Source: Neobacillus sp. PS2-9 (GTDB taxonomy: Bacteria; Bacillota; Bacilli; Bacillales; Cytobacillaceae). From it: DNA of 64,000 bases. Below, in pieces: positions 40,161 through 62,719 of the stretch (positions within the stretch are counted from its first letter, which is position 1; the number at the start of each line of letters is the position of its first letter). Location of the stretch: assembly GCF_030915525.1 (NCBI RefSeq), contig NZ_CP133269.1, positions 4,234,501 to 4,298,500 on the forward strand, in the 5' to 3' direction. Made by a program: the position numbers and the translations under genes. Below the pieces are notes generated by a model. That model worked only from the letters and a program-made list of their open reading frames with translations, was not told the origin of the DNA and ran no database searches.

Positions 40161-40199
40161 TTATTCGCTTAAAACTAAAAGTGAACAGGACTCAACGTG
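40161..40199 (-). pseudogene. Fossil C-terminus of an RlmD-family methyltransferase (copy 1)
   Basis: A 13-codon minus-strand fragment reads HVESCSLLVLSE and stop, opening with the catalytic HVE motif that ends TrmA/RlmD-family enzymes. Upstream codons give HSS. The intact gene at 61331 ends [14 protein letters not shown] in the same orientation. A terminator follows. It is interpreted as a gene end displaced by integration of elements into the 3' end of the methyltransferase gene. The fragment is short, so chance cannot be excluded for it alone. Confidence 0.45.
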
Positions 40200-40268
40200 G
40201 CTTGAATGGTCATCACGGATATACTGATGTAGTATTGATTTTACCTCTCCCCGAAAAGACGAAAAAAT

Positions 40269-40868
40269 TTATCGCAGTGTTTTTAATGCTCCGCTCCAAG
40301 CAACAACTTCATCTAGCATCGCATTTACATTATTTAGATGTAACTCTTGTGGTTTAAACTCTGACCCATTAACAAAATCGGTAAATAGACTTAAAGTTGG
40401 GTGTGTACGAACATCTGCTACTTTCTGTTCGGCAAGAATTCCACGTAAATGTTCAGCTGCACGAGCTCCGCCAGTTGAACCATAACTTACGATACCAGCT
40501 GCCTTGTTGTACCACGCTTCACGTGCAAAATCGATAGCGTTCTTTAATGCACCTGTAATACTGTGATTGTACTCTTGAACGATGAATACAAATCCATCCA
40601 GGCTTGCAAGTTTTTCATTCCATGCTGCAATTCCAGGCTCCGTTCCATCTGTTGTTCCTAAAAACGGAAGATTAAAGTCAGCAATATCTACAATTTCATA
40701 ATTGGCATCTCCACGCTCGTCAGCAATTCCTTTCACCCATTCTCCCACTTGAGGGCTCACACGTCCTTGACGAGTGCTTCCTAAGATAATTCCAATGTAT
40801 AATTTTTCTGTTGTCATTGTAACGTCCTCCTTAGTTTGTTTCCCAAATATTTTTTCTAATAAACCCAT
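40269..40868 (-). CDS. NADPH-dependent FMN reductase (flavodoxin-like)
   Basis: 199 residues. Flavodoxin-like fold of the NAD(P)H:FMN/azoreductase family: the phosphate loop IILGSTRQGRVSPQVGEWV, then FVIVQEYNHSITGALKNAID and GIVSYGSTGGARAAEHLRGI. It probably supplies reduced FMN or reduces quinones, which suits the adjacent LLM oxidoreductase. Two starts are possible: ATG 40868 with GGCGGTG upstream, giving an extra N-terminus MGLLEKIFGKQTKEDVT, or ATG 40817 with AAGGAGG upstream. Part of a unit with the LLM and VOC genes. Confidence 0.87.
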   Translation of the reverse strand: MGLLEKIFGKQTKEDVTMTTEKLYIGIILGSTRQGRVSPQVGEWVKGIADERGDANYEIVDIADFNLPFLGTTDGTEPGIAAWNEKLASLDGFVFIVQEYNHSITGALKNAIDFAREAWYNKAAGIVSYGSTGGARAAEHLRGILAEQKVADVRTHPTLSLFTDFVNGSEFKPQELHLNNVNAMLDEVVAWSGALKTLR

Positions 40869-40891
40869 TTTTTAACACCGCCTATAAACAG

Positions 40892-41953
40892 TTATTTACT
40901 TGTTTCTCTTCGAACGATTGGGGCAATTTCAGTTGCTAACATTTCAATACCTTTTGCTACATTTTTAAAAGGTTGACCACCTATATCTAACTGTGCAAGA
41001 AATCGATGGTGCCCAAAGAGTTCGTATTGTTGAAGGATTTTCTCGATGATTTGCTGTGGACTCCCCACGAACAATGCAGTTTCCGGACTAGCCATATGTT
41101 CGAAATCGTTCCTTGACATCCTTGTCCCCATACCACGTTGACGGTTTACATATTCCCAGTAATTGGAGTAATAAGGATAAAACTCGTCCTTGGCTTGCTG
41201 TGTTGTCTTAGCTATATAAGCATGACCTGTTACACCAATTTTCAACATTTCTGGTGAATGTCCAGCATCTATTCCAGCTTGACGATAAAGATCGACAAGG
41301 GGTTTAAAACGGCTTGGATGACCACCCAAAATAGCTAAAGCCATCCCCACCCCAAATCTCCCAGCACGAACAGCACTTTTTGGGGTCCCACCAACGCCAA
41401 TCCAAATTGGTAAATTTTCTTGTACCGGTCTTGGTGCAATTTCAGCATTCCTTAAGGAAGAACGGAACTTCCCCGACCATGTGACGGTCTCATTCTGGGT
41501 CAGTCGTAATAGGAGGTCCATATGTTCTTCAAACAATTCATCGTAATCGTTTGTACTATAACCAAAAAGAGGAAATGATTCTATAAATGCTCCCCTTCCT
41601 GCCAGTATTTCTGCCCGACCATCCGAAAGTAAATCCAATGTAGCAAAATCTTCAAAGAGACGAACAGGGTCAAGTGTACTAAGAACACTTGTTGTACTTG
41701 TTAATCTAATTTGTTTTGTTACTTGCGCAATAGCAGCCAATAGAACCGCTGGAGAAGAAGAAGCATAATCCAGTCGATGATGTTCTCCTACTCCAAATAC
41801 ATCTAGTCCTGCCTCATCAGCAAGTTTTGCGGCTTGAACAATTTCATTTACTCTTTCCTTAACCCCTATGGTCTTTCCAGTCAGGGGGTCCGGACCAATA
41901 TCAGCAAGTGTATAAATACCAATTTCAATACCGGCACTTTCTTTTGCAGCCAA
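40892..41953 (-). CDS. LLM-class flavin-dependent oxidoreductase
   Basis: 353 residues, a luciferase-like TIM barrel that uses reduced flavin. Marks: GVGEHHRLDYASSSPAVLLA, RLFEDFATLDLLSDGRAEIL and GRGAFIESFPLFG. The start is TTG 41953 with GGGAGG upstream. The upstream VOC gene and downstream FMN reductase lie 15 and 23 bases away, so the three genes form one operon; the reductase could provide its FMNH2. The substrate is unknown. Confidence 0.88.
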   Translation of the reverse strand: MAAKESAGIEIGIYTLADIGPDPLTGKTIGVKERVNEIVQAAKLADEAGLDVFGVGEHHRLDYASSSPAVLLAAIAQVTKQIRLTSTTSVLSTLDPVRLFEDFATLDLLSDGRAEILAGRGAFIESFPLFGYSTNDYDELFEEHMDLLLRLTQNETVTWSGKFRSSLRNAEIAPRPVQENLPIWIGVGGTPKSAVRAGRFGVGMALAILGGHPSRFKPLVDLYRQAGIDAGHSPEMLKIGVTGHAYIAKTTQQAKDEFYPYYSNYWEYVNRQRGMGTRMSRNDFEHMASPETALFVGSPQQIIEKILQQYELFGHHRFLAQLDIGGQPFKNVAKGIEMLATEIAPIVRRETSK

Positions 41954-41968
41954 TCGTATTCCTCCCTT

Positions 41969-42820
41969 CTATACGGCTAACTCTATTGTGTTTCCAGAAG
42001 GATCAATGGTGATAACATGATTATTTTCTTCTACTACCTCCGCACCGATCTGCTTCAAATTCGTCACTGCTTGTTTACGAGCCTCTTCATTATCAAAAAT
42101 AAGCGTAAACGATTGGAGACCCACACTATTTTTAGCGGGAGCTTTTGCCCCTACGCCATTCCAAGTATTAACCCCTACATGATGGTGATATTTTCCGTAA
42201 GAGAGGAATAAGGCCTGCGATCCAAACCGATTAACAACATCCATACCGAGTCCCTTCACATAAAATTCTTCTGTCTTAGGTAGTTCTGACACGTGTAAAT
42301 GAATGTGTCCCATTACCGTTTCAGCAGGCATTCCCTGCCAGGGTCTATCCGGTGTGGAAGACTTGAGCAAGTTCTCAAAATTTAATGGATCAACAGCCAT
42401 TGCCACTTCAGCGTTATTCCATTTCCATTCAAAAGGAGCTCGATCACGGTAAATTTCAATCTCATTTCCATCTGGATCATGCAGGTACAATGCTTCACTG
42501 ACAAGGTGATCAGAAGACCCAAAGCGAATTCCTTTGTTCACCAAATGAATAACAATATTAGCTAAATCTATCTCAGTTGGTAATAGAATGGCAAAATGGT
42601 ATAAACCAGTTGTTCTTCCCTGTTTTGGGATAACATTTTCAGGTTGCTCCAGTGATAAAATACTTGTTTTCCCATCAGTAGTTAGTTTTGCTGTTGAAGT
42701 TGTTTGCTCCAAAATATTGAAACCAAGTATATCCTTATAAAATTGAATTGAACGGTCTAGTTTTTCTACTTTAATTTTGACATTTCCCACGAATGTAGTG
42801 GGCTTTGAATGAAATCCCAT
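41969..42820 (-). CDS. CatE-like VOC protein, probable catechol 2,3-dioxygenase type
   Basis: 283 residues with two VOC modules (residues 10-130 and 165-283), the organisation of the extradiol dioxygenase CatE (YfiE) of B. subtilis. Motifs: TGLYHFAILLPTEIDLANIV, EALYLHDPDGNEIEIY, GHIHLHVSELPKTEEFYV and YHHHVGVNTWNG. Metal ligands are expected at the His of GLYHFA, the His of HLHVS and a late Glu. ATG 42820 with TAGGAGGG was chosen over 42892. First gene of the operon, divergent from an HxlR regulator, as catechol/quinone-response genes often are. Confidence 0.85.
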   Translation of the reverse strand: MGFHSKPTTFVGNVKIKVEKLDRSIQFYKDILGFNILEQTTSTAKLTTDGKTSILSLEQPENVIPKQGRTTGLYHFAILLPTEIDLANIVIHLVNKGIRFGSSDHLVSEALYLHDPDGNEIEIYRDRAPFEWKWNNAEVAMAVDPLNFENLLKSSTPDRPWQGMPAETVMGHIHLHVSELPKTEEFYVKGLGMDVVNRFGSQALFLSYGKYHHHVGVNTWNGVGAKAPAKNSVGLQSFTLIFDNEEARKQAVTNLKQIGAEVVEENNHVITIDPSGNTIELAV

Positions 42821-43078
42821 AATTACCCTCCTAGTATTCTTTTTATGACTTGAAAAACTTTTGATCCAATGATAGTTGAGCTTTAACTGCAAATACGAAA
42901 TATATTGATATGGCTAATTAAACGAGTTCAAGTTCATATCCAAAAACCAACTGTATTTGACATGCCACCCTGGAACTTTGAAATCCCATGAATAAAAGAT
43001 ATAAGACCTACTACTACTCTTAATATAACTTTTCCAATATCGTTCTTAATCAATCTGCATTCCCTTTTTTAAGGCAAG

Positions 43079-43095
43079 TTACTTTATGTAAGTTA
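43079..43095. promoter_or_regulatory. Candidate YodB/HxlR-type operator
   Basis: TTACTTTATGTAAGTTA closely resembles the YodB box of B. subtilis (TTACTATTTGTAAGTA, from memory). It lies in the divergent gap between the CatE-like operon and the HxlR gene. The rest of 42821-43188 is AT-rich, with a second loose TTAAGTAATGTCAAGTAATT region and no gene. Confidence 0.5.
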
Positions 43096-43188
43096 TTATA
43101 TTTATGTTATTAAGTAATGTCAAGTAATTAAGTTCATATTTATAATTAAGTATGGTACAATAGTTATTAAGAGAGGTGGATTTAAGAT

Positions 43189-43524
43189 ATGAAACAACCT
43201 ACAATTTGCCCAAAATTTGAAAAGGCAATTTCATTATTAAGTCAGAGATGGACAGCATTAGTTATCTATCAATTATTATCGGGACCACAAAGATTTAACG
43301 AAATTCAATCTTCTATTGGTATAAGTGGAAAGGTATTATCAGATCGTTTAAAGGATTTAGAGTACCAAGGGGTGGTAAAACGGGAGGTTATACCAGAAAC
43401 ACCAGTCATCATTGAATATTCTTTAACGGATAAAGGGCATTCCATGGAACCCATTTTAAGAACAATTGAAAACTGGTCTCAGGCTTGGGTTAAAGTGGAA
43501 TTAGATTCAACTGAAAGTAATTAA
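43189..43524 (+). CDS. HxlR-family redox regulator, YodB/CatR-like
   Basis: 111 residues with the HxlR winged helix: ISLLSQRWTALVIYQLLSGP, RFNEIQSSIGISGKVLSDRL, then the wing LEYQGVVKREVIPETPV. Cys7 in TICPKF corresponds to the conserved N-terminal Cys that senses quinones and diamide in YodB and CatR. It is divergent from the flavin-enzyme operon and probably represses it. GAGGTGG stands nine bases before the ATG. Confidence 0.87.
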   Translation: MKQPTICPKFEKAISLLSQRWTALVIYQLLSGPQRFNEIQSSIGISGKVLSDRLKDLEYQGVVKREVIPETPVIIEYSLTDKGHSMEPILRTIENWSQAWVKVELDSTESN

Positions 43525-43822
43525 AGGAATTACAGATTTGATGGAGTTTATTTTGGAAATTAAAAAAGACATTAACATAGTTTTACTTTTCGTAGTTACT
43601 ATGGCTAATGTCTTATCTTTTTTCTGGGGGCAGACAAGGAAACATTTACAGTGTATCTTCTTCAGGTCCAATCGCGACGATTTCCGTATCTTTCTACGAA
43701 TTTATTATATTTTTGATGCAACTGGATCATATGCTTACTGCAAAACGTTCAAACAATCCCTCTACCACAATCTTCTTCATCAGTACTAAAGTCTCCACAA
43801 GTTATGATAACCGGTAGGGGAA
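43525..43822. other. Gene-free stretch left of the fossil gene ends
   Basis: About 300 bases after the HxlR stop codon. Overlapping short frames exist in several phases on both strands, but none has a binding site or recognisable motif. It may be decayed coding sequence. No hairpin terminator was found. Confidence 0.35.
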
Positions 43823-43858
43823 TTATTTTAAAACTAGCTGACACACACATTCAACATG
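43823..43858 (-). pseudogene. Fossil C-terminus of an RlmD-family methyltransferase (copy 2)
   Basis: Twelve codons on the minus strand read HVECVCQLVLK and stop, preceded by HSS, like copy 1. Compared with the intact end [14 protein letters not shown] it keeps the catalytic HVE motif and seven of the following residues. The DNA just beyond it (GGCTTGAGTGATGGTC) matches that next to copy 1 (GGCTTGAATGGTCA), as expected for two ends of the same class of element. Confidence 0.6.
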
Positions 43859-43879
43859 GCTTGAGTGATGGTCGCAGAC

Positions 43880-43915
43880 TTATTTCAAGATTAACTGCGA
43901 TACACACTCAACATG
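43880..43915 (-). pseudogene. Fossil C-terminus of an RlmD-family methyltransferase (copy 3)
   Basis: Twelve codons on the minus strand read HVECVSQLILK and stop, preceded by Thr. This differs from the intact gene end at 61331 by a single residue (Ile to Val) over eleven, while most codons differ at synonymous positions. That is strong evidence of a once-functional gene end rather than chance. It is fused directly to the 55-bp arm at 43916-43971 and is the likely left attachment junction of the defence island. Confidence 0.75.
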
Positions 43916-43971
43916 TGTGGACTGTAATTGAAAACACAATGGGATGTTGGTGGGTTTATCAACATTCTTGA
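43916..43971 (-). repeat. Left arm of the island (copy 2 of 3)
   Basis: Contains GTGTGGACTGTAATTG, AAAACACAATGGGATG and TTGGTGGGTTTATCAACATT, matching the arms at 24071 and 47172. It abuts the fossil gene end at 43880-43915, so it probably represents the element half of attL. Between it and 44136 nothing else is recognised. Confidence 0.6.
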
Positions 43972-44136
43972 GGCTTTCCTGCTTAGAATATTACAATTGT
44001 CAAACTAACTCACACATTTATAGAGCAGGAAAAAATACTATTAGTCTTTTAAAGAATTCGTTAGATAAGTGCTAAAACTTGTAATTTTAAAAAATACCCC
44101 CTTATAATTAAAAAGAATGAGTTGGGAGGTATTCAA

Positions 44137-44811
44137 ATGTGGATTTCAGACTACAAAGCTTTTTGGGATTCTTTTTGGGCAGGGCTTTTTTCAGGTACTA
44201 TATACAGTATTATTGTAGGTTTAATTGTTGGTTACATTCTTTGGAGGTTTCAAAAAAATTTTGAAGAAACTGAGTTAAAAATCCAAAGCGAACGGGAAAT
44301 AAGTGTTTTTTCCAGGAACCTTGCCACCTCATTAAGATTACCCAAGGTCATAAAGATACAAGATAAAGCTGAACTTTTTTTACCTATGAATGTCTTAGAT
44401 ACCCTTGAGGTTATTTCAAAACAACCGATTGATTACTGGAGTAACCATTTACCAATTGAATCAGATCAGAAGAGCAGGATAGAACAACTACAAAAAGTCC
44501 AAACAGAGCATTCTGAATTTATAATAGCTTCAAATAAGCTAGATATAGCCCTAACTGCTCAATTAAGAACTATATATGCAAATCCAAATACATATAAGAA
44601 CGAAATTTCAATATGCCTCGCACTAATTAATTCTATTAGCAATGAGGAAATATCAAAGTGGTTTCCCAGTTTTAATCAACATTCAATTGAAAACTTTAGT
44701 AAAATCGCTAATGATAATTATGAACTATCAGAAGCAATATCCTACTATACATTAATCAAAGATGATTATTTACTTCCTTCAATAGAAACCTTAAAGCCCT
44801 TATTCATTTAA
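44137..44811 (+). CDS. Membrane-anchored hypothetical protein
   Basis: 224 residues, no family recognised. One membrane segment near residues 15-35 (GTIYSIIVGLIVGYILWRF) precedes an all-helical soluble domain with regular hydrophobic spacing. ATG 44137 was chosen for GGGAGG eight bases upstream. Base composition is AT-rich like the rest of the island. First cargo gene after the left junction, followed by its own terminator. The topology, a single anchor with a cytoplasmic helical domain, is common in anti-phage membrane effectors, but no functional motif supports this. Confidence 0.65.
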   Translation: MWISDYKAFWDSFWAGLFSGTIYSIIVGLIVGYILWRFQKNFEETELKIQSEREISVFSRNLATSLRLPKVIKIQDKAELFLPMNVLDTLEVISKQPIDYWSNHLPIESDQKSRIEQLQKVQTEHSEFIIASNKLDIALTAQLRTIYANPNTYKNEISICLALINSISNEEISKWFPSFNQHSIENFSKIANDNYELSEAISYYTLIKDDYLLPSIETLKPLFI

Positions 44812-44829
44812 CATCAAATTATAAGATTT

Positions 44830-44861
44830 AATAAGATGCAAATAATTTTTTGCATCTTATT
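44830..44861 (+). terminator. Terminator after the membrane protein gene
   Basis: AATAAGATGCAAA pairs perfectly with TTTGCATCTTATT around six bases, followed by a T-rich stretch. Confidence 0.8.
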
Positions 44862-44938
44862 TCTTATTAAGAAAATGATGCCTTATGTTTGATCGAGTGA
44901 AACCTTTATTCTAGCTGAACTTAAACTAAGCTCTCTTA

Positions 44939-45091
44939 TTAGGAAAAATCGTCTTGTTCATCATAGTAATGAAATCCATCTTCAATTTTCTTATCACATT
45001 TTGACCAATGTAGGCAGTATCCCCATTCTCATTGCACGGGATATACACTCTCAATATTTACACACACAAAAAATTCATTTTCCTTAATCAT
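44939..45091 (-). pseudogene. Decayed small zinc-ribbon-like gene with in-frame TGA
   Basis: From ATG 45091 the minus strand reads MIKENEFFVCVNIESVYPVQ, then TGA, then EWGYCLHWSKCDKKIEDGFH, YYDEQDDFS and TAA at 44939. The Cys pattern and acidic end look like a small zinc-binding protein. The single in-frame TGA at codon 21 breaks it. The remaining gap 44862-45269 shows nothing else. Confidence 0.4.
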
Positions 45092-45269
45092 CCCTAAATT
45101 AATCCCTTCTATTGTTTAAATCTTTTCCTCTAGAGCACCATTTTAACTCCCTATTAACCTGAGCTATCCTGATAATTCTATCTCTAGAAATGGCCTGTAC
45201 ACTATAATCCATTATTTTCTTTTATAATAATAACTTTTCAAGCAATTAAGATACGGAAATCTGAAGAAA

Positions 45270-46058
45270 TTAAATTACATTAACTCGTGTAAATTTAAAA
45301 TACTTTCCTGAAGATCGATCAAACATAAATATTTCACTAGATTCTAGCTCGGTAGCTTTTGTAAAAATTATTCTTTCTTTATCCAATGAGTAGTTAACAA
45401 TTAGAATAGAGTCATTAAATTCTTTTTCACTTATTATCTTGCAAATGTATTTGTAATCAATTCTTTTGTGAAAGGTACGGTAAAGATACAACAATAACAT
45501 CGGAAAAAATAGCAAGAAGATAATGCCACTTTGAGCTTTACCAATAGATTTGAAAAGAAAGGTTTCCAAAAGGGAAGCATATACAATAAAACTCATATAC
45601 ACATTTAAATTAAAAAAGTATCTAATAAATCTAATATGAAATATTTTTTTAAATAAATTTATTTTTTTTGTAGTTTTCTCCCCTAGTATCTGGAGAAAGA
45701 TAACCTTTAAAATGATAGGAATAAAAGTAAGAAGAAAAATCCACTGAAACAAGTTTATAAATAAGAGACCTATAATTGAATTATTAATATGAGAAATAAT
45801 TATAGAAAGAAAGAATCCGGGTAGAAAATATAAAAAACAAAATAAAAAGTAATCAATAATTGTTACTATTTTTTGCTGTATACTTTTTTCGTTTTTAGAT
45901 ATAAGCAATCGGTCAAATTCATTATATGATTTTATCGTATAGAGTTTATTTAGTAATGGATAAATAGTAAGAAGTAAAGAAATGATAAAAAATACTATCT
46001 GGGTAGGTCCATTTATACCATCTTTCCACAGTTCTAAAATCTTTTCCAGTTGGTCCAT
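45270..46058 (-). CDS. Polytopic hypothetical membrane protein
   Basis: 262 residues with about five hydrophobic segments (GPTQIVFFIISLLLTIYPLL, FLFCFLYFLPGFFLSIIISH, IGLLFINLFQWIFLLTFIPI and two more). It ends in a 70-residue soluble domain (FNDSILIVNYSLDKERIIFT). No family recognised. ATG 46058 with AGAGGAAG upstream preferred over 46085. Lies alone on the minus strand inside the island. Confidence 0.65.
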   Translation of the reverse strand: MDQLEKILELWKDGINGPTQIVFFIISLLLTIYPLLNKLYTIKSYNEFDRLLISKNEKSIQQKIVTIIDYFLFCFLYFLPGFFLSIIISHINNSIIGLLFINLFQWIFLLTFIPIILKVIFLQILGEKTTKKINLFKKIFHIRFIRYFFNLNVYMSFIVYASLLETFLFKSIGKAQSGIIFLLFFPMLLLYLYRTFHKRIDYKYICKIISEKEFNDSILIVNYSLDKERIIFTKATELESSEIFMFDRSSGKYFKFTRVNVI

Positions 46059-46287
46059 ATTGCTTCCTCTTATCTCAAAATTCAAAACTCTTCCATATTA
46101 TAACAAAATAATATAACTACGGATATAGCTTTTTAAAACTATGCTCCCTGTTCAACTACTTACTGGTTCATTAATGTAACAAGAAAATAGATTTTAACAG
46201 TAACTCAAATAGAGCCGCTTTATTATTCGTTTTTTGAATATGTTTTCAACTTTTTGCCAATACCTTTAGTATTAAGGAGGCGGAAAA

Positions 46288-46887
46288 ATGCTTATATCAG
46301 AAATTTTAATTGCTATTTTATTAGCATTAGCTTTTGTCCATTTTCAATTAACAAAAAGGAAAAATACTTATCAAACATCTATGTTAATTCAACATATAGA
46401 TTCAAGCGAAGAAATGAAAAAAACCTTAGCGATGGGATTATATCTACGATTCAAAAAAGAAAATCAAGATAATCCTCCTAACTATTCCTCAATTTATATT
46501 AAGGAAGATCCACTAGTGTTTGAATTGTTTGTAGCTGATGTAATTCAGAAAATAAGAGGTGGATCCATATGGGTATCACCACCATCAGGAGATTTTGGTG
46601 TAGATTTTGAACATACAACTGACAAAGGGATGTTCTTAGGTCAAGTAAAATGTTACCAGGGTGATTTACCCTTTGACCCAATAGCATTAATACATTCAAA
46701 TATGATTAAAAAAGGTGCTGTTGGCGGGTATGTAATTACTACCGGATCTTTTACTCCAGCTGCGAGGGAATATACTGATGGATTGAATATTGAATTAATT
46801 GATGGAGTTAAACTCGTTGAACTATGGATTAATGGGTTGGTGAATGTTGAAGAAGAAATAAAAAAATTGATACCGGAATTTATTTAG
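46288..46887 (+). CDS. Membrane-anchored Mrr-like restriction endonuclease
   Basis: 199 residues. An N-terminal membrane helix (ISEILIAILLALAFVHFQL) precedes an Mrr_cat/restriction-endonuclease-like domain: FELFVADVIQKIRGGSIWVS, the acidic DFGVDFE and GQVKCYQGD, which supply the D...QxK catalytic set of this fold, then GAVGGYVITTGSFTPAAREY. Mrr-type enzymes cut modified or foreign DNA. A membrane anchor on such a nuclease is unusual but known in defence islands. AAGGAGG precedes the ATG and a terminator follows. Monocistronic. Confidence 0.78.
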   Translation: MLISEILIAILLALAFVHFQLTKRKNTYQTSMLIQHIDSSEEMKKTLAMGLYLRFKKENQDNPPNYSSIYIKEDPLVFELFVADVIQKIRGGSIWVSPPSGDFGVDFEHTTDKGMFLGQVKCYQGDLPFDPIALIHSNMIKKGAVGGYVITTGSFTPAAREYTDGLNIELIDGVKLVELWINGLVNVEEEIKKLIPEFI

Positions 46888-46888
46888 A

Positions 46889-46920
46889 TAGCAACCCTTT
46901 CTCCGAAAGGGGCTTTTTTT
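46889..46920 (+). terminator. Terminator after the Mrr-like gene
   Basis: AGC.ACCCTTTC pairs with GAAAGGGGCT around three bases and is followed by seven T. Confidence 0.75.
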
Positions 46921-47048
46921 GAAATACATTTACTTAAGATACATTGATATTCTATTGCCAAGATGATAATAGCTGACAATTAAACCACCTACTATAATTA
47001 AAACCTAATTGAACCTGATAAAAGGAATGATAAGTTTAGACACATAAA

Positions 47049-47082
47049 AACCCACCCTTAAGTGTTTAAATTAGGGTGGGAG
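47049..47082. terminator. Hairpin in the 46.9-47.4 kb gap
   Basis: CCCACCCTTAA pairs with TTAGGGTGGG around a loop of about nine bases. With the arm copy at 47172 it is the only structure in the gene-free stretch 46888-47378. Confidence 0.5.
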
Positions 47083-47171
47083 CATTGGTGAACACCAATG
47101 GATTTTCTACTATTATTATATCTCTATTCGTATAATTTAATTCACTAACACTTTATTTTAAAATTATCAGC

Positions 47172-47229
47172 GTATTGTGTGGAGGTAATTGACAACACAC
47201 GGGATGATGGAGGCTTTATCAACATTCCT
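47172..47229 (-). repeat. Internal copy of the island arm (copy 3 of 3)
   Basis: Reads TGTGTGGAGGTAATTGACAA, then CACACGGGATGATGG and TTTATCAACATTCC, about 75-80 percent identical to the arm at 43916. Its low-coordinate flank (AAATTATCAGCGTATTGTGTGG) matches the flank of the 24.07-kb copy. It probably marks the left end of an older or nested element. Confidence 0.55.
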
Positions 47230-47378
47230 TTAGAACAATTCAAGTAAAATGTTGATTGAGTTTTTATCACTAGGAACTGTAGTAAACTGAAAAACATATC
47301 CTAAATTTAAGATCATAATAATACATTCCACCTCATTGTTTAATCACTTTATTACATTTATTTTTAACTAAACTTCTA

Positions 47379-48311: not shown

Positions 48312-48534
48312 AGTTTAAAAATCAATTTTCCTTCGATTTTATTAATGAATAATGTATTATTAAATTTTACATTTACATTAATATCTAAAAAACTTTGCAT
48401 TTTCTATTATGTTTTTTTGTTTACATTAAAATTTCGATATATTTTTTTAATATTTGTATTTTTATATTATATATTAATAACGTTTAAATGTGGTAATATC
48501 TTCTAGTAATCAAAGAGGAAGGAGTAAAGATTAG

Positions 48535-55557: not shown

Positions 55558-55623
55558 TAAAATCCCCCCGTAACTTACCTACAAGCCCAATTCTACATAT
55601 ATATACATATTTTTACAAACTAA

Positions 55624-55857
55624 ATAATTAAATGTGATGCAAAAAATGATATTAATAATAATTTTAGAAAGGTTTTTACAGAGTTTATCCTCATAGAAGA
55701 ATTGTTTGTATCCTAATTTGATGATGAAAAAATATTTTATTTTTTTCTAGAAACCTTGGTTTTTGAAAAAATTAAAGAATATAATCCGTATGAAAAATTT
55801 AAAACAAGAGATTTGGAAGTAATTCAACCAATAATTAAACACTTACATAAAAGATAG
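55624..55857 (+). pseudogene. Decayed small ORF upstream of the recombinase operon
   Basis: A plus-strand frame reads DINNNFRKVFTEFILIEELF, VS, then TAA at 55714-55716, then FDDEKIFYFFLETLVFEKIK and EYNPYEKFKTRDLEVIQPII, ending at TAG 55855-55857. Its composition is clearly protein-like; the stop and the lack of a start codon suggest a relic. It was probably the first small gene of the recombinase operon. Confidence 0.4.
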
Positions 55858-55922
55858 AGTATTGAGCTTTAGTTACATCCATTTTTCAGACATATCATCA
55901 CAAGAATAAGGAGAGATATTCT

Positions 55923-56084
55923 TTGAAAGTTTTCCGCTGCTATGCTTCACAAGAAAATGCACTAAATGTAAAAACAATTATCCAAGAGTTATTAGTTTCT
56001 GAATTAGAAAGAATGATAGACCAATCAGCAAAAGATAATAACCTACTCGATAAAAATAGACAGTTTGGAAGTGATTGTTCTTGA
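55923..56084 (+). CDS. Tiny ORF 1 of the recombinase operon
   Basis: 53 residues, beginning MKVFRCYASQENALNVKTII. TTG start with AAGGAGAG eight bases upstream. Family unknown; charged and helical. Its stop codon overlaps the next start as TTGA, so the small genes are coupled. Confidence 0.5.
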   Translation: MKVFRCYASQENALNVKTIIQELLVSELERMIDQSAKDNNLLDKNRQFGSDCS

Positions 56085-56239
56085 GAACTACAGAACAAGA
56101 TTTTTCATTAACAAGATTAGCCCACAATAACTTTGCAGAAAAATTGGTACGTCTACAGGAGGATGGCTACATATCACCATTCCTACTACAGCAATTTCTA
56201 ACTTATAAATATGGGAGGATAAACAATGAAAGAAAATAA
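56081..56239 (+). CDS. Tiny ORF 2 of the recombinase operon
   Basis: 52 residues, beginning MRTTEQDFSLTRLAHNNFAE. Starts at TTG 56081 within the previous stop (TTGA), with GGAAGTGA upstream. Overlaps the start of ORF 3 by 14 bases. No family recognised; helical, possibly DNA-binding. Confidence 0.45.
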   Translation: MRTTEQDFSLTRLAHNNFAEKLVRLQEDGYISPFLLQQFLTYKYGRINNERK

Positions 56240-56366
56240 CATCAAGTCTTTTCCAGGCCAAGAGAAGGGAATTATCCAAATACTAATTAAACAAACAGAT
56301 GTAGAAGAGTCTGTTCAGCTAAGATTTGATTTGGAATTCGACGATTCGTGCCCTAAGAATAGTTAG
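56226..56366 (+). CDS. Tiny ORF 3 of the recombinase operon
   Basis: 46 residues, beginning MKENNIKSFPGQEKGIIQIL and ending with an acidic stretch (FDLEFDDSCPKNS). ATG with GGGAGG seven bases upstream, the best supported of the tiny ORFs. Family unknown. Confidence 0.55.
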   Translation: MKENNIKSFPGQEKGIIQILIKQTDVEESVQLRFDLEFDDSCPKNS

Positions 56367-56389
56367 TTAAGTTTCCTTAACCGTATAAA

Positions 56390-56429
56390 ACACACCTATT
56401 TCCGTCAAAGATGAAATACGGAGGTGTGT
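56390..56429 (+). promoter_or_regulatory. Hairpin covering the ribosome binding site of tiny ORF 4
   Basis: ACACACCT (56390-56397) pairs with AGGTGTGT (56422-56429) and CCGT (56402-56405) with ACGG (56418-56421), so the GGAGGTG site for the ATG at 56435 is inside the stem. The geometry fits translational control of ORF 4 and the overlapping first recombinase gene. Confidence 0.5.
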
Positions 56430-56434
56430 TGTTT

Positions 56435-56620
56435 ATGCGGAAGAAAATTAATATACAAATGGAATCTGAGATGAATCCTGTAGCTGATATTTGGTTTCAA
56501 CATTTAATCCAGCGAATAATTGTTGAGCAATTAGATGTACCTCATCGGCTTCAGGCGAAGTTACTTTATCAAGACATCGTAAAGGAAAGAAGCAACAATG
56601 GTTCAAACAATAAAAAATAA
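56435..56620 (+). CDS. Tiny ORF 4 of the recombinase operon
   Basis: 61 residues, beginning MRKKINIQMESEMNPVADIW, helical and basic at the end. GGAGGTG site upstream, sequestered in a hairpin. It overlaps the first recombinase gene by 23 bases, so it is probably its coupled co-factor or regulator. Small partner proteins of this size are known for some large serine recombinases (recombination directionality factors); the assignment here is a guess from position. Confidence 0.6.
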   Translation: MRKKINIQMESEMNPVADIWFQHLIQRIIVEQLDVPHRLQAKLLYQDIVKERSNNGSNNKK

Positions 56621-58007
56621 AAACAAGTATAAAGTCTTTTTTCGGAGAGTGAGCACCATCAACCAAGATTTAGCTATGCAGGAATCTGCTGATGCTATGT
56701 ACCGAGAGAATTACATCCCTGATGAGGTATTAATTATGAATGAGGATGGAGTTTCTGCTAACAAACTCGATATTGAGAAACGGCCGCAAATGAAGAAACT
56801 CATTCAAATGATAATTAATGATCAAGTTGATATTATCTACGCCTTTGATCGTTCAAGATTGTTCCGGGACTTTTATGAGTCAAATTACTTCGTTTCTCTG
56901 TGTAAAAAACATAAAGTGAAGATTTTCTTTACATCGTCGGGGAACGGTCAGCAGGCAACAGATAGTACACTTCTTGAAGGCGTAATGAACATTGTAAGTG
57001 ATGTTGAGGGAAAAAACATTGCTAGGCGAACTGAAGAAGCTAGAAAAAGATATCCACCTCGCAAACTTGGATATATAAAGCAAAAAGAAACCAAACAGTA
57101 TAGTATGGATCCTGCGAAAAAGGATAATTTATTCTTATATTTTTCGGCAATCAAGGAAGTTACAACACATAAAGATTTGGAAAAAGCTTTAAAGCAATTT
57201 AAAAAAATTCTCAAAACCACTCCAAATCAGTTATTAAAAATTGTGAACGATCCTTTTTATGCCGGTTATGATCTGACCACAGGAAAGAACAAACTTTCAC
57301 ACGTTGATCCTTACCTTAGCTATGAAGAATTCCAAAAATTGCAAGCTAAAAATGCCGTAATTATATCCTATCAAGAGATTGAACAGTCACTAAAAAATCA
57401 AGATATCTATGATGTGTACTGCGGTATTTGTAGAAAGCCAATGAAATTTCACTTTAATGTCCTTGATCAAAAAGCCTGGTACTCCTGTTCAAGTAAACAT
57501 CCAAAATCTTTAATAGCAACAGAAGATTTATCTCCTATTATTAATAAGTCTTTGGAGAAAATCATTGAGCACCTAGATACAGAAGATCTACTTAAAGATT
57601 CTAGGCATTTTTTCCATTTACTCCGCAAAAGCATTGAAATAGAACTAAAAGCATTGGAGATAAAAAAACATTACTTGATGGAAAAAATCATTTTAGAGAC
57701 TGATGATTTTAGCAATTGGAGAGAGAACACCCACTACGTTGATTTAAATAAATTAGAGAATGAACAAAAGGAGTTCCTTAACCAAATAGAAGAAAAAAAA
57801 GACCTTTTATTAGAAAACGAGAGCTTGGTGGGACTAATAAAAGATTATTTACATAAAAGCAGACAGGCAAATCCTTTTTTCCTTACATCGGTGCTTATCC
57901 GGAGCTTATTTGTTTATCCAAACGAGGTAAACATTGAGGTTAGCAAATTTGACTATCTACAAGATTTTCAGTCCCAATATATTTTTAACGGAGATGATTT
58001 ACTTTGA
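56598..58007 (+). CDS. Large serine recombinase 1
   Basis: 469 residues. The N-terminal resolvase domain has the nucleophile Ser19 in FFRRVST and the arginine region YAFDRSRLFRD. It is followed by a recombinase domain (FYAGYDLTTGKNKL) and a zinc ribbon (CGICRKPM...WYSCSSKH) with a coiled coil at about residues 340-420. These enzymes insert or excise DNA by double-strand cleavage through Ser-DNA links. Its stop overlaps the start of recombinase 2 as TTGA. It is shorter in the recombinase domain than its two neighbours, and GYIKQK replaces the usual PYGY, so it could be a specialised subunit. Confidence 0.9.
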   Translation: MVQTIKNKNKYKVFFRRVSTINQDLAMQESADAMYRENYIPDEVLIMNEDGVSANKLDIEKRPQMKKLIQMIINDQVDIIYAFDRSRLFRDFYESNYFVSLCKKHKVKIFFTSSGNGQQATDSTLLEGVMNIVSDVEGKNIARRTEEARKRYPPRKLGYIKQKETKQYSMDPAKKDNLFLYFSAIKEVTTHKDLEKALKQFKKILKTTPNQLLKIVNDPFYAGYDLTTGKNKLSHVDPYLSYEEFQKLQAKNAVIISYQEIEQSLKNQDIYDVYCGICRKPMKFHFNVLDQKAWYSCSSKHPKSLIATEDLSPIINKSLEKIIEHLDTEDLLKDSRHFFHLLRKSIEIELKALEIKKHYLMEKIILETDDFSNWRENTHYVDLNKLENEQKEFLNQIEEKKDLLLENESLVGLIKDYLHKSRQANPFFLTSVLIRSLFVYPNEVNIEVSKFDYLQDFQSQYIFNGDDLL

Positions 58008-59488
58008 AATTAGCATTTGCTTATATCCGTCGTTCTTCGTATAAACAACAAAAAAATAACAGTGTTGAAATCCAGAAACAGCATATTCAAGAATTCGCTA
58101 AACGGAATAACCTTTTTGTCCCTGTTGAACTAATTTTCATCGAAGATGTTACTAGTGCTTATTCCAAACGTGCAGCCCAACGAAAACAATTAATGAAAAT
58201 GTCCGAAAAAATGGTTGAAATGAATATACCGACCGTTATTTTCCACGATATTTCTCGGATGGATCGTACCGGTTATTCATTCACGATTGATTTTTACAGA
58301 CCTATGCTAGAAAAACTGCCGGAACTTGAGGTTTACACCACGGATTCAAATAAACCACTTGATCCGGAAGATACTAGTATAAAAATGAATTTCTTGTTAT
58401 TCCAGCACGAATCAGAAGTAAAATCTGAGCGTGCAGTAGGAAATTTAACAACCTTTTTAGAAAATAATGAAACATTCAGACCTGGATCAAAAACTCCTTA
58501 TGGATATAATCAGATAAAAAAACAAAAACACCAACAACAATTGGAACCGAATGAAAATGCGGACATTGTAGCATTTATTTTTTTCCTGTCAAGCTGGGGA
58601 AAATCTTTACAAAAAATCGCCATAATTTTAAATGAAGCAAATATTCCCTCACCGAAGGGAGGTACTTGGCGGTCCAGCACAGTTGAAAATATCCTTAAAA
58701 ATCCAGTATATACAGGAAAATTAACCTGGGATATACCTAAACGGACAGATGGTGGAAAAAAGCAATTTGTTTTTGAAGATTCACATCCCGCAATTATAAA
58801 CAAATTCCAACCACAGTTAATAAAGTTAAATAACCAACTTCAAAAAACTTTCGGCAGAATAGATACACCATTTCTTTTTTTAAACAAGGTGAAATGCAGA
58901 CATTGCAATCAATTGTTAAGTACTCAAAATGCTTCGACCAGACGAAATGGTATCAAGTATCCTTATTATTACTACGTATGTAAAAATTGCGGTTATAAAG
59001 TAAACATCCAAGAGGTTCACGACAGGTTTATCCCTTTGATTTTAAAGCGTGTAATGGAGCTATTATCTAGACACCAGATAGAACCTCAAACCTTATCATT
59101 TATCAATCAAATGATTGATGAGGTTGAAAACAGTATCAACTCTAAAGATCAACTCTTAAAGAAACTCGAGGAAAAATTAAAAATTGCAAGAGATCTTAAA
59201 GATCGAGAACTTGAGCTGAAAATTTTGGAATTTATTCAAGAACACAAAAATTCTTTAAAAGAATACACGATTTGCCAAGAAAATTTAAAGACAACTTATC
59301 AACTTGTAGAAAAGGACCAATTCTTTTCCAGATTTAATGAGATACTGGATCATCGATTAGGGGCAGATGAGATAAGACTCATCATCCTGTATTTTGTAGA
59401 CTACCTTGTTCTCTCTACTGACCAGGAACCACAATTACATTTCAAATCAAATATCTTCTCCAATCTAATTGATAAACCTATTGGATGA
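58004..59488 (+). CDS. Large serine recombinase 2
   Basis: 494 residues. Catalytic Ser in AYIRRSS (Ser11 or 12), the DRT-containing FHDISRMDRTGYSF, the recombinase domain (TPYGYNQIKKQK, PSPKGGTWRSSTVENILKNP), a zinc ribbon (CRHCNQLL...YYVCKNCGY) and a coiled coil, residues about 365-440. TTG start inside the stop of recombinase 1, with GGAG upstream, so translation is coupled. Two such coupled recombinases recall CcrA/CcrB, which work as a pair. Confidence 0.9.
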   Translation: MKLAFAYIRRSSYKQQKNNSVEIQKQHIQEFAKRNNLFVPVELIFIEDVTSAYSKRAAQRKQLMKMSEKMVEMNIPTVIFHDISRMDRTGYSFTIDFYRPMLEKLPELEVYTTDSNKPLDPEDTSIKMNFLLFQHESEVKSERAVGNLTTFLENNETFRPGSKTPYGYNQIKKQKHQQQLEPNENADIVAFIFFLSSWGKSLQKIAIILNEANIPSPKGGTWRSSTVENILKNPVYTGKLTWDIPKRTDGGKKQFVFEDSHPAIINKFQPQLIKLNNQLQKTFGRIDTPFLFLNKVKCRHCNQLLSTQNASTRRNGIKYPYYYYVCKNCGYKVNIQEVHDRFIPLILKRVMELLSRHQIEPQTLSFINQMIDEVENSINSKDQLLKKLEEKLKIARDLKDRELELKILEFIQEHKNSLKEYTICQENLKTTYQLVEKDQFFSRFNEILDHRLGADEIRLIILYFVDYLVLSTDQEPQLHFKSNIFSNLIDKPIG

Positions 59489-59606
59489 ATTATCGAAATG
59501 TAATAGTTGATTATTGGGCAAATAACCGAACATTTAGCTGTTGGAGATATCGCCAACTTAGACTATACCCAGAACCCCTATAGCAAGGGGTTTCATTTGA
59601 GGCTTG

Positions 59607-59654
59607 TTCGGTACTTTGTCCAGATTGGTATACCATTACGGACAAAGTATCGAA
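59607..59654. promoter_or_regulatory. 48-bp imperfect palindrome between recombinases 2 and 3
   Basis: TTCGGTACTTTGTCC (59607-59621) and GGACAAAGTATCGAA (59640-59654) are complementary with one mismatch; the centre is TGGTATACCA. The size is right for a serine-recombinase site, but the symmetric centre fits an operator better. It lies in the 233-base gap upstream of recombinase 3, which contains no convincing gene. Confidence 0.6.
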
Positions 59655-59721
59655 AAATTATTATAAGTATGGACGAACTACCGAAATTTATACATAAGTA
59701 AAATAAAAAGGAGATATCAAA

Positions 59722-61314
59722 ATGTACTTAAACTCAACTCAGATAAGCTCAGCAACTATTGGTAATGCTATAGTCATAAACCCACCAACATCTCAATACT
59801 TTACTACTTATGGTGGTGATCGTGTTTTGAGATGTGCAGTATATGCTCGTGTCTCCACTGAGATGGATTCACAAAAAACATCTATAGATAATCAAAAGGA
59901 TTTATTTAGGAATTACGCTTCCCAACACAATTGGGAAATTGTAAATTTCTATGAAGACAAGAAATCTGGAACAAAAGAGAATAGACCTGGTTTAAAAAAA
60001 CTAATTGAAGACGGTAAGGCTGGTTTATATGATGTGATTTTAGCTAAGGAACTTTCCAGATTAGCTCGTAACGGTAGATTATCTTATGAATTAAGGGATA
60101 TCTGCTTACAAAATAATATTCATATTGTCTGCCTTGATAATTCAATTAATACGATTACCGGAGACGTACAAAACTTTGGTCTTTTTGCTTGGCTGTATGA
60201 AAATGAGTCAGCCACTAGCAGCCGGAGAAATAAGGCTGCCAAACGTACAAAAGCTAAAAGAGGATTATTTGTAGGTTCTAACCCACCTTATGGATATTAT
60301 TCGGACAAAGGTAAGCTAAAAATTCGTGAAGACAACACTCCGGAAATCGTTAGACGAATTTTTAACGAATACTTGGATGGAAAAGGAATGGATTCAATAG
60401 CAAAAAGTTTCACAGCAGAAAAAATCCCTACCCCATCGCAAATTGCTAATAAGACTAATCAATCACCTTTATGGCACGCCTCCACAATAAAAAACATCTT
60501 AAATAATCGACATTATTGTGGTGATCTTGTTCAAAACAGAACTGAAACAATCTCAGTAACAACAACAAAAAGAAGAACTATTGAAGAAGACCAAGTTACA
60601 TTTATAGAAGGTAAACACGATGCTATCATCTCAAGAGAAACATTTCAGGCAGTGAAAAAAATGCTCCAAACAAGAACACGCACAACTACCGCTCCAAAAA
60701 AGCATCTGTTTACGAACGTTTTTTTCTGTGAAGATTGCCAAAAAGGAATGTGGTACAAAACAAATCAAAAAGGGTATAGATGCGGAGGCAATATTAAGTA
60801 CGGTGATACGTTCTGTCTAAATAAAGTTGTTATTAGAGAAAAAGAACTAAAACAAATTATCCTAGAGGATTTACAGCAACTATTCCAATCCATTCAAGAT
60901 GGTGAATTTATAAAGAGTTTACACAAAAGATTGGATCAAAAGAAGGTTTCGATTACAAACGAACTAAAGAAAATTGAACATAAAGCAACTAAATTACGTT
61001 CTAGAAAGAAAGATTACCTTGATTTGTACGCTGACCAAATTATATCTCGAGAAGAACTGGTTGAATATAGAAAGCAGATAGACCAGGAAGTAGCAGAGCT
61101 CGAAACAGCCAAGATTGAATATCAAGAAAAACTTGAGGAATGCGAAAGTGAGAACTATGCAATTGATTTAAGTAAGAAGCTTAAAGACGTTTCATTACTA
61201 GATGATTTAACTCCTCAAGTCTTGCACTCGTTGGTGAATAAAATAACCTGTAGCATAAAAGGTAATCTACGTATTCATTACAACTTCGTAAATCCTTTCG
61301 AAGAACAAAAATAG
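59722..61314 (+). CDS. Large serine recombinase 3
   Basis: 530 residues. A 35-residue N-terminal extension precedes the resolvase domain (AVYARVSTEMDSQKTSIDNQ, Ser45; LAKELSRLARNGRL). Then follow the recombinase domain (NPPYGYYSDKGKL, TPSQIANKTNQSPLWHASTI), a zinc ribbon (CEDCQKGMWYKTNQKGYRCG) and a coiled coil. AAAAGGAG precedes the ATG. Its stop codon lies inside the terminator hairpin of the methyltransferase gene, so it forms the extreme right end of the island, where an integrase gene is expected. Confidence 0.92.
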   Translation: MYLNSTQISSATIGNAIVINPPTSQYFTTYGGDRVLRCAVYARVSTEMDSQKTSIDNQKDLFRNYASQHNWEIVNFYEDKKSGTKENRPGLKKLIEDGKAGLYDVILAKELSRLARNGRLSYELRDICLQNNIHIVCLDNSINTITGDVQNFGLFAWLYENESATSSRRNKAAKRTKAKRGLFVGSNPPYGYYSDKGKLKIREDNTPEIVRRIFNEYLDGKGMDSIAKSFTAEKIPTPSQIANKTNQSPLWHASTIKNILNNRHYCGDLVQNRTETISVTTTKRRTIEEDQVTFIEGKHDAIISRETFQAVKKMLQTRTRTTTAPKKHLFTNVFFCEDCQKGMWYKTNQKGYRCGGNIKYGDTFCLNKVVIREKELKQIILEDLQQLFQSIQDGEFIKSLHKRLDQKKVSITNELKKIEHKATKLRSRKKDYLDLYADQIISREELVEYRKQIDQEVAELETAKIEYQEKLEECESENYAIDLSKKLKDVSLLDDLTPQVLHSLVNKITCSIKGNLRIHYNFVNPFEEQK

Positions 61315-61340
61315 GCAACAACCACGAGGGTTAGTTGCCT
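61313..61340 (-). terminator. Terminator of the RlmD-family gene
   Basis: AGGCAAC.ACC pairs with G.TTAGTTGCCT on the minus strand and is followed by ATTTTTG. It overlaps the stop codons of both converging genes. Confidence 0.7.
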
Positions 61341-62719
61341 TTCTTTAAAATGAGTTGCGAGATACACTCGACGTGCGCCGTATGCGGAAACATATCCACA
61401 GGTTGAATATACTTAACCTCATACTTTGAACTTAACGTCTGAATATCTTTCGCCAAAGTGGACGGGTTGCAAGAAACATAGATCAATTTTTCAGGCTTCA
61501 CTTGCAAAATGGTTTGAAGCAGCTGGTTGTCCAGTCCGGTTCTCGGTGGGTCGACCACGATGACATCCGGCTTCCAGCCTTTTTTCACCCACTTAGGCAA
61601 AACTTCTTCCGCTTTACCTGGGACGTATTTCGTATTGGTGAATCCGTGACGTTTGGCATTCTTCTTCGCGTCATCAATGGATTCTGGAATTATGTCCATG
61701 CCGCGCACTTCTGCTGCCTGATCCGCCAGCCACAATCCAATCGTTCCCACCCCACAATAAGCATCAACAATTTTCTCTTTACCTGTCAGAGCGGCCGCTT
61801 TTTTCACCTCGTCGTAAAGCTTGACGGTTTGGATTGGATTTAGTTGAAAGAACGTTCTTGCTGACAGCTCAAACTGCAGGTCCCCTAGTGTCTCTTGGAT
61901 AAACTCTTCGCCAGCTAGCGCAAGGGTTTCCTCCCCAAAAATCAGCGACGTTTTTTCACCGTTGATGTTTTGAACAATTGATTTTACCTTAGGAAGTCGT
62001 TTTTGAATTTCTTCTATAATTAAGTCCTCTTTAGGTAACTCTTTTTGTGTAGTAATAAGGACGACCTGAAGCTCTCCCGTTTCCACTCCTACGCGGGCAA
62101 CGATTGTTCTAACAATACCTTTACTCCTTTTTTCATTATAAATTGGAATTTGCAGGTCCTCTAAGACTGATTTTACCTTTGTGACCGCTTCGTTTGTTTG
62201 TGAATGCTGGACCGCACAATGTTCAATATCAATGAGCTGGTGCGAATTCATTCCATATAATCCGGCTAACACCTTACCATTTTTCTGAGCCACTTGGAAA
62301 CTGCTTTTATTCCGGTAGCCCCACGGATTTTCCATTCCAATCGTTTCACGGATATCCAGCTTGTTGACTGCTAGTTTTGTATGCCGCTCAAGCGATTGAA
62401 TGATGATATCGCGTTTTTCTTTTAATTGCTGTCCGTACTGTAAATGCTGCAGCTGACAGCCACCACATTGCTCATAAACCGGACATGGCGCTTGTACACG
62501 ATGCGGTGATTGGATACGGATTTTCTTAATTTTTGCCTCAGCGAATTTAGGATTGATTTTCGTCGCCTCAACCACTACCTCTTCACCAGGAAGCGCACCC
62601 GGTACAAACACGACTTGCTTTTTAAAATAGCCGACGCCTTCCCCATTAATCCCTAGTCTTTTGATCGTTAACGGAAAAGTCTGCTTCAGTTGAATTTTAA
62701 TACTTTGCTCGGTTTTCAT
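61331..62719 (-). CDS. yfjO: RlmD-family 23S rRNA (uracil-C5)-methyltransferase, YfjO type
   Basis: 462 residues, full length. N-terminal TRAM domain, then four Fe-S cysteines ([17 protein letters not shown] plus Cys near 167), the SAM-binding [16 protein letters not shown], the catalytic Cys in [12 protein letters not shown] and the catalytic Glu in AHVECIS near the C-terminus. It methylates uracil C5 in RNA. Position next to yfjP and pdaA matches yfjO of B. subtilis rather than rlmCD (yefA). Its last 15 codons, from HVE onward, are the presumed integration target and may be element-supplied. Confidence 0.88.

What the first reader, a model, noticed from the sequence alone, without database searches (positions are those of the whole stretch)
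40161..61375. Ladder of fossil methyltransferase gene ends marks successive integrations at the yfjO 3' end
Three minus-strand fragments, 40161-40199 (HVESCSLLVLSE), 43823-43858 (HVECVCQLVLK) and 43880-43915 (HVECVSQLILK), each start at the catalytic HVE motif and end in a stop, like the intact gene end at 61331-61375 ([14 protein letters not shown]). They share its orientation and lie on the side where displaced 3' ends would be pushed. Differences from the intact end are largely synonymous, so they were functional ends. I infer that elements repeatedly cut the gene at the HVE codons, restored it with their own 3' end and left the old ones behind. The oldest copy still has a terminator right behind it. 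From memory, streptococcal elements with serine integrases use the same region of rumA/rlmD.
Basis: partly seen in the sequence, partly recalled or inferred. Interest (0 to 1): 0.88.

Follow-up and report, generated by a model that had tools for sequence, protein, structure and literature searches.

The report
Stacked mobile cassettes re-ending one gene
Mobile DNA cassettes, here carrying anti-phage genes, appear to have inserted repeatedly at the last codons of a ribosomal-RNA methyltransferase gene, each time giving the gene a new tail and leaving the old tail behind, so the DNA keeps a readable record of the insertions.

Summary
A sister species without the island (G054) supplies the empty site: its rlmD-type gene ends in the sequence now stranded at 40161-40199, followed by the same terminator and neighbours; the two flanks overlap by 11 bp at the HVE codons. 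The window therefore holds three stacked units: A (43916-61375; three serine recombinases plus defence cargo with Kiwa), B (57 bp: cap plus end only) and C (40200-43858; no recombinase found). Of 78 loci encoding relatives of the outer recombinase, 65 have an HVE...stop 'cap' just behind the recombinase, about 1 expected. The cap follows the recombinase lineage, not the host gene, and related recombinases use paralogous RlmD-type genes. Two corrections: the 'oldest' end is probably itself a cap from an earlier element, since five relatives have another end type beside the next conserved gene; and arrival of A-C en bloc is not excluded. A serine-recombinase element at these codons is published for Streptococcus (PMC13214566), so this is a new, SCC-like variant of a known kind.

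The parts
61331..62719 (-).
   Evidence: TIGR00479 rumA/RlmD 606 bits against cut-off 183.6; best hit among solved structures 5xj1 SP_1029
61331..61375 (-). Cap of unit [15 protein letters not shown], the present 3' end of the gene
   Evidence: Nearly the same cap nucleotides on RlmD-type genes of other genera and on a paralogous gene, with related recombinases; also on several genes of the genus without an R3 hit
61365..61375 (-). 11-bp core CACGTCGAGTG (His-Val-Glu-Cys), region of the exchange
   Evidence: Overlap of the two flanks in the G054 comparison
43916..61375 (.). Unit A, youngest element, 17,460 bp
   Evidence: Bounded by the core in the gene and the core at 43905-43915
55706..61375 (+). 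Conserved recombination module of unit A
   Evidence: 79-90% DNA identity to L122, L123, L124, L125, L136, the matches starting within 21 bp of the same border; no DNA match to the window's cargo beyond it
59722..61314 (+). Large serine recombinase R3 (outer), convergent with the target gene
   Evidence: PF00239, PF07508, PF13408
58004..59488 (+). Large serine recombinase R2 (middle)
   Evidence: PF00239, PF07508
56598..58007 (+). Serine recombinase R1 (inner)
   Evidence: PF00239
54745..55557 (-). 270-aa gene overlapping the helicase gene; a HamA-like role is inferred from position only
   Evidence: No Pfam hit; weak PDC-M12B hit E=2e-4
51257..54769 (-). DEAD-box helicase with HIRAN domain, HamB-like
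   Evidence: PADLOC PDC-M23B 2e-74, HamB 4e-70; Pfam
50235..51197 (+). KwaB of a Kiwa anti-phage system
   Evidence: PADLOC KwaB 2e-108; PF16162
49645..50238 (+). KwaA of Kiwa
   Evidence: PADLOC KwaA 4.5e-77
47379..48311 (-). FRG-domain protein, candidate defence gene
   Evidence: PF08867; PDC-S15 9e-21
46288..46887 (+). Mrr-type nuclease-domain protein, candidate defence gene
   Evidence: PF04471; PDC-S02 3e-9
43916..43975 (-). Distal end of unit A (family I end: CACCAACATC...TCCACA before the core)
   Evidence: Similar sequence before stranded caps in G035 (two), G009, G015, G037, G043
43859..43915 (-). Unit B, 57 bp: cap HVECVSQLILK* directly followed by a 21-bp family II distal end
   Evidence: Same cap-stop-end arrangement in G044
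40200..43858 (.). Unit C, 3,659 bp: cap HVECVCQLVLK* (43823-43858), HxlR regulator, glyoxalase-, luciferase-like and FMN-reductase genes; no recombinase found
   Evidence: Pfam; same gene block about 14-17 kb downstream of the gene in G023, about 86% DNA identity
40200..40222 (-). Distal end of unit C (family II-like, ...ACCATTCAAGC before the core)
40161..40199 (-). Stranded former gene end HVESCSLLVLSE*
   Evidence: Working end in G054, 37 of 39 bases identical
40104..40142 (-). Former terminator of the gene
   Evidence: Same hairpin behind the working gene in G054
33760..39828 (-). Heterocycloanthracin/sonorensin-type bacteriocin cluster, probably cargo of a still older layer (inferred)
   Evidence: TIGR03601, TIGR03693, TIGR03604; lies between the CCSLL-type cap and the ABC-F gene that follows the gene directly in G034 and G051

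Best explanation
The 3' end of an RlmD-type gene is the attachment site of a group of serine-recombinase cassettes. Recombination between the His-Val-Glu codons of the gene (attB) and the matching codons in a circular cassette (attP) splices the cassette in. The cassette supplies a new stretch of codons after HVE (the cap: the rest of the C-terminus, with a stop), so the gene still encodes a full-length enzyme; the old codons and terminator are pushed to the far end. Because the new gene end is again an attB, cassettes stack, youngest next to the gene. In the window, unit C, then unit B, then unit A went in at a gene that ended as in G054. Shown by sequence: the empty site, the borders, the cap exchange, stacking in several genomes, and the link of cap to recombinase. 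Inferred: that R1-R3 catalyse it, that the cassette circle exists, the order of events in this lineage, and that the capped enzymes are active.
For: (1) Empty site in G054 with 11-bp overlap at HVE. (2) Stranded AVAKLILK-like ends beside the ABC-F gene in G035, G009 and G043, where G034 and G051 have such an end on the working gene. (3) 65 of 78 recombinase loci have a cap starting within -30 to +120 of the recombinase end; expected 0.93. By category: 47 next to an RlmD-family gene, 15 next to a gene-less cap, 16 other, 2 of them at contig ends; with a looser pattern and wider windows 12 of those 16 have a cap on the opposite strand behind the recombinase, 16-77 nt behind its stop in 11 and 313 nt in L171. 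(4) Cap similarity follows recombinase similarity (Mantel r=0.37, p=0.0005, n=44), not gene-body similarity (r=0.007, p=0.44); the nearest recombinase neighbour shares the first six cap residues in 34 of 44 (chance 0.20) but the target paralog in only 19 of 44 (chance 0.46). (5) Stacks with recombinase genes in two layers: L133, and L147 with pieces. (6) Same core as the 18-bp repeats of a streptococcal rlmD element. (7) A solved relative appears with Gln in place of the Glu of HVE (5zq0 sequence, alignment), which fits a catalytic role of that codon.
Against: The crossover base is not fixed and the two sides disagree. Third bases of His, Val and Glu vary among genes whose elements carry related R3 recombinases, while the following bases vary much less (where the family was picked by those very bases and the contrast is partly built in): this points to the right of Glu. 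Yet stranded ends keep the third bases of their presumed originals (G000 v. G054; G035 v. G034), which points to the left. Unit C has no recombinase, and only 11 of 59 other genomes have an R3-like hit within 500 bases of the gene end. No genome of the 60 was found with C alone or B+C alone at this site. 4 of 78 loci show neither gene nor cap (L136 and L174 at contig ends; L154 and L199 unexplained). The Mantel test takes no account of tree structure. Excised circles were not looked for.
Confidence: 0.92

Rival explanations
1. The three units were assembled elsewhere and arrived together as one 21-kb composite island; only one integration took place in this lineage.
For: None of the 60 genomes shows an intermediate state with C or B+C alone.
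Against: Unit C's gene block occurs without a unit A hit 14-17 kb downstream of the gene in G023; units A and C have distal ends of different families. Assembly anywhere still needs stepwise insertion at HVE.
Confidence: 0.2
2. The fragments are partial duplications of the gene end by ordinary homologous or illegitimate recombination.
For: They are short copies of a gene end in the same orientation.
Against: None carries gene sequence upstream of HVE; they are preceded by end motifs shared across independent loci, and their caps differ from the gene's present cap.
Confidence: 0.03
3. Chance matches to a short motif.
For: The fragments are only 36-39 bp long.
Against: 0 hits on the opposite strand and 0 in 5.2 Mb simulated, against 12 on the gene strand; 37 of 39 bases identical to the G054 end, with terminator and 14 kb of flank.
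Confidence: 0.01
4. Recombinase-less units (B, C and others in the genus) are only decayed leftovers of once complete elements, not cassettes moved in trans.
For: Recombinase genes at some of these loci are broken or partial: R1 and R2 of G015 lie in two pieces each, and G008, G036, G041, G042 and G045 give only partial R3 matches beside the gene.
Against: Unit C is compact with both ends readable; G035 holds two stacked units for which no recombinase hit was found.
Confidence: 0.55

Closest known systems
Streptococcal elements with a single serine integrase in rumA/rlmD (PMC4701971; PMC13214566)
   Same: Serine integrase, same gene family, same codons (published repeat CAGACGCATCACGTGGAG = QTHHVE), exchange of the gene's 3' part
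   Different: There one integrase whose own 3' part is exchanged with that of rumA, with a change of frame, on conjugative elements. Here three recombinases, R3 ending outside the cap, no conjugation gene recognised, stacking, paralogous targets
Streptococcal ICEs with triplet serine integrases (PMC4701971)
   Same: Three tandem serine recombinases in one orientation, clustered by position
   Different: There they disrupt mutT, traG or hsdM; here the gene end is replaced and the frame stays open
Staphylococcal cassette chromosome, SCC, and SCC-like islands (PMC10581047; PMC7581432)
   Same: Large serine recombinases, an rRNA methyltransferase gene as site, direct repeats, cargo that differs between elements, restriction systems among it; SCC-like islands in rlmH are reported also for Bacillus cereus and Geobacillus (PMC10581047)
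   Different: Target rlmH (or rimL for ccrDE islands); CcrAB or CcrC. R3 scores 99.9 against the CcrA cut-off of 700
Erysipelothrix prophage phiEr670 beside RlmD (PMC12785378)
   Same: RlmD gene flanks the element; the paper says RlmD flanks prophages in other Gram-positives too
   Different: Prophage; no gene-end ladder in the passages read

Membership tests
SCC (staphylococcal cassette chromosome) | Inserted in rlmH | tested here: not met
   Target is RlmD-type, TIGR00479
SCC (staphylococcal cassette chromosome) | ccrA/B/C recombinases | tested here: not met
   R3 shows remote similarity only: 99.9 of 700, 88.8 of 900, 72.8 of 900 bits
SCC (staphylococcal cassette chromosome) | Target gene kept open, repeats at both ends, stacking (works like) | tested here: met
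Streptococcal rumA/rlmD serine-integrase elements | Crossover at the HVE codons of rumA/rlmD | tested here: met
   against the repeat quoted
Streptococcal rumA/rlmD serine-integrase elements | Single serine integrase whose own 3' end is exchanged | tested here: not met
   Three recombinases; R3 stop at 61314 lies outside the cap
Streptococcal rumA/rlmD serine-integrase elements | Conjugation or mobilization genes | tested here: not met
   No relaxase or VirB4 among Pfam hits of the 14 unit A proteins scanned; several of them have no Pfam hit, and small overlapping ORFs were not scanned
Triplet serine-integrase modules | Three tandem serine recombinases, order kept across elements | tested here: met
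   In one search, 21 of 78 loci show R1, R2 and R3 in that order on one strand; L128 has a short R1 match on the other strand; most of the rest show only R3, and the weaker R1/R2 matches are about 30% identical
Kiwa | Adjacent kwaA and kwaB | tested here: met
Hachiman | HamA plus HamB | tested here: inconclusive
   HamB-like helicase found, but its partner matches no HamA model at E 0.001

The most novel reading that the evidence does not exclude
The RlmD 3' end works as an acceptor for a cassette array, in the manner of an integron. Recombinase-less units, each a coding cap plus a small operon plus a distal end (unit C, the two units of G035, perhaps the 57-bp unit B), are captured in trans by recombinases of resident elements, so the methyltransferase gene is the fixed platform of a growing chromosomal array and its C-terminus a memory of the last capture.
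Probability: 0.25. Interest if true: 0.82.

Novelty: new variant of a known kind. Interest (0 to 1): 0.62.

Why it matters
It shows defence-carrying serine-recombinase cassettes living at the end of an rRNA methyltransferase gene other than rlmH, over many genera of Bacillota. The site lies on codons that paralogs and species share, so related elements can be found in different genes and hosts. Stranded caps give a relative order of insertions at a locus and explain 'variable' C-termini of these enzymes; the caps also give one half of attP for dozens of recombinases. No description of this in Bacillaceae turned up in the searches (listings; open-licence PMC papers only; several of these returned no paper).

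Tried and rejected
Rejected: chance; duplication of the gene end (no upstream gene codons in the fragments); membership in SCC or in the streptococcal rumA group proper (see membership table); the idea that the 40161 end is the original chromosomal end (relatives show another end beside ABC-F). Tried without success: fixing the crossover dinucleotide from third-base variation (the two sides disagree); a fuzzy search for family II ends that found only the window's copy and missed the known one in G044, replaced by a pattern search, which also showed such an end in G036; a trace of the AVAKLILK end left of the bacteriocin cluster in the window (none that I could read); caps behind the two paralogous genes of the same genome (only their own ends in 20 kb each). 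PMC2359905 held none of the terms searched. PMC10083194 (passages) holds neither 'rumA' nor 'methyltransferase'. B. subtilis gene names and the role of the Glu as general base are recalled; here only the Gln variant bears on the latter.
Full report
What was checked. The window lies at 4234501-4298500 of a single 5.19-Mb contig. The gene at 61331-62719 is an RlmD/RumA-family 23S rRNA methyltransferase; the genome has two paralogs of the same family.

Empty site. I searched 61 genomes of the genus with the protein; 60 have it at E<=1e-150, and I fetched the downstream DNA of the 59 others besides the window's own (up to 20 kb each, several cut short by contig ends). In G054 the gene ends CACGTTGAGTGCTGTTCACTTTTAGTTTTTAGCGAATAA, then the terminator; the window's 40161-40199 differs at two bases. 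G054 1-103 aligns to window 61467-61365 (93%) and G054 93-14000 to window 40199-26212 (97%). The two flanks overlap by 11 bases, His-Val-Glu-Cys. The bacteriocin genes left of 40161 begin at base 464 of the G054 piece; their proteins are 96-98% identical. So 40200-61375 is inserted, and 40161 is the displaced end.

A deeper layer. In G034 and G051 the gene ends AVAKLILK* or VVADLILK*, and the 3' end of an ABC-F gene (97-98% identical to window 32107-33660) lies roughly 120-135 bases beyond. In G035, G009 and G043 that ABC-F gene (96-98%) has a gene-less end of the same type before it (AVAKLILK, AVVKLILK, TVAKLILK), while the gene itself lies about 9.9, 6.7 and 7.4 kb away with another end. G043 was missed by the pattern and seen. 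In seven further genomes with ABC-F in view, the window's and G054 among them, no such end is left (in G052 a possible remnant). CCSLL caps also sit on Paenibacillus and Cohnella genes next to elements of this kind (L164, L166, L171).

Anatomy. Unit A (17,460 bp) has R1-R2-R3 next to the gene. From 55706 to the cap it is 79-90% identical in DNA to L122, L123, L124, L125 and L136 (Neobacillus, Bacillus, Alkalicoccobacillus, Fredinandcohnia), the matches starting within 21 bp of one another. Beyond that point the window carries Kiwa, a HamB-like helicase with a partner gene, an FRG protein and an Mrr-type protein. I scanned 20 proteins of seven relatives, chosen from the ORF lists, against PADLOC at 1e-10: 9 of 10 and 6 of 10 had hits, namely type I restriction-modification genes (L122/L202, L123, L124, L125, L136), PDC-S06 (L122, L126), a bSEFIR protein (L128) and a Gabija/Old-like protein (L180). 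One protein without a hit, in L125, is an Ig-domain surface protein by Pfam. Unit C has four metabolic or regulatory genes and no recombinase. Unit B is only a cap and a 21-base end; G044 has the same arrangement in its working gene.

How general. One scan of named genomes with an alignment of 11 R3 proteins gave 78 loci (119 relatives, the best 80 kept). 47 have an RlmD-family gene convergent with and next to R3 (25 of the second paralog type, 18 of the window's type, 4 of the third), 15 a gene-less cap in the same place, 2 end with the contig, 14 neither. Of these last 16, 12 have a cap on the other strand behind the recombinase, found with a looser pattern in wider windows, where two further matches on other strands look like chance. 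In three of the 12 (L164, L166, L171) the host gene is in view at the other end with its own cap: there the recombinase lies at the far end and points at the stranded old end. With one strict pattern, 65 of 78 have a cap starting within -30 to +120 of the recombinase end, where 0.93 is expected from the pattern's frequency in the same loci, a frequency that includes the caps themselves.

Cap belongs to the element. For 43 gene-adjacent loci and the window, cap similarity follows recombinase similarity and not gene similarity; neighbouring recombinases share caps but not target paralogs. In 71 cross-paralog pairs with recombinases over 60% identical, the last 120 residues of the gene before HVE are 49% identical on average and the caps 74%. 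A stack with recombinase genes in both layers is seen in L133 (R3 with a gene-less cap, then a second R3 beside the gene) and, with recombinase pieces, in L147.

What is not settled. Among the window and 14 loci with close R3 relatives, the third bases of the His, Val and Glu codons depart from the commonest base 7, 8 and 5 times, the next 21 positions together 10 times, as if the three codons came from the host. But the stranded ends in the window and G035 keep the bases of their presumed originals, as if the exchange lay left of them. One reconciliation is that these bases are the little-contacted centre of the site and drift freely while the flank is held by recombinase binding. GA, the central dinucleotide reported for CcrAB (PMC10581047, passages), is present in the Glu codon; I have no test of it here.

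Known background. PMC4701971 (passages incl. abstract; section 23) describes single serine integrases that enter rumA and exchange 3' parts of rumA and integrase, and triplets that disrupt mutT, traG or hsdM. PMC13214566 (passages) gives the rlmD repeat that encodes QTHHVE. PMC12785378 (passages) reports prophages beside RlmD. PMC7581432 and PMC10581047 (passages) cover SCC; the latter cites SCC-like islands in rlmH of Bacillus cereus and others. The site is therefore known; the stacked, cap-swapping, defence-carrying three-recombinase cassettes of Bacillaceae and their use of paralogs were not found in the searches listed under 'why it matters'.

Noticed in passing
window 33760-39828: Heterocycloanthracin/sonorensin-family bacteriocin cluster with ThiF-like and SagD-type maturation proteins, present in G054 but with no hit in the 20 kb downstream of the gene in G052.
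   Followed up: partly
window 43859-43915; L029 (G044) gene end: A 57-bp unit made only of a cap and a distal end, in the same arrangement in two species; how such a minimal unit forms is unexplained.
   Followed up: partly
L069 (G035), about 0.1-10 kb downstream of the gene: Two stacked units with ORFs that look metabolic or transport-related by eye and no recombinase hit; possible trans-mobilised cassettes.
   Followed up: partly
L164, L166, L167, L171, L196: Second layout: recombinase at the far end pointing at a stranded old end, with a shared end GTGACCGACACTCAAGT before the core.
   Followed up: partly
L147 and L190: Gene-less caps preceded by the same 24 bases in two genera, perhaps the far end of a shared second element.
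   Followed up: no
L154, L199: R3 relatives with 4.4 and 2.9 kb of flank but no cap found; possible change of target.
   Followed up: no
window 44122-44811, 45270-46085, 48535-49134: Three unit A genes without Pfam or PADLOC hits, lying among defence genes.
   Followed up: no
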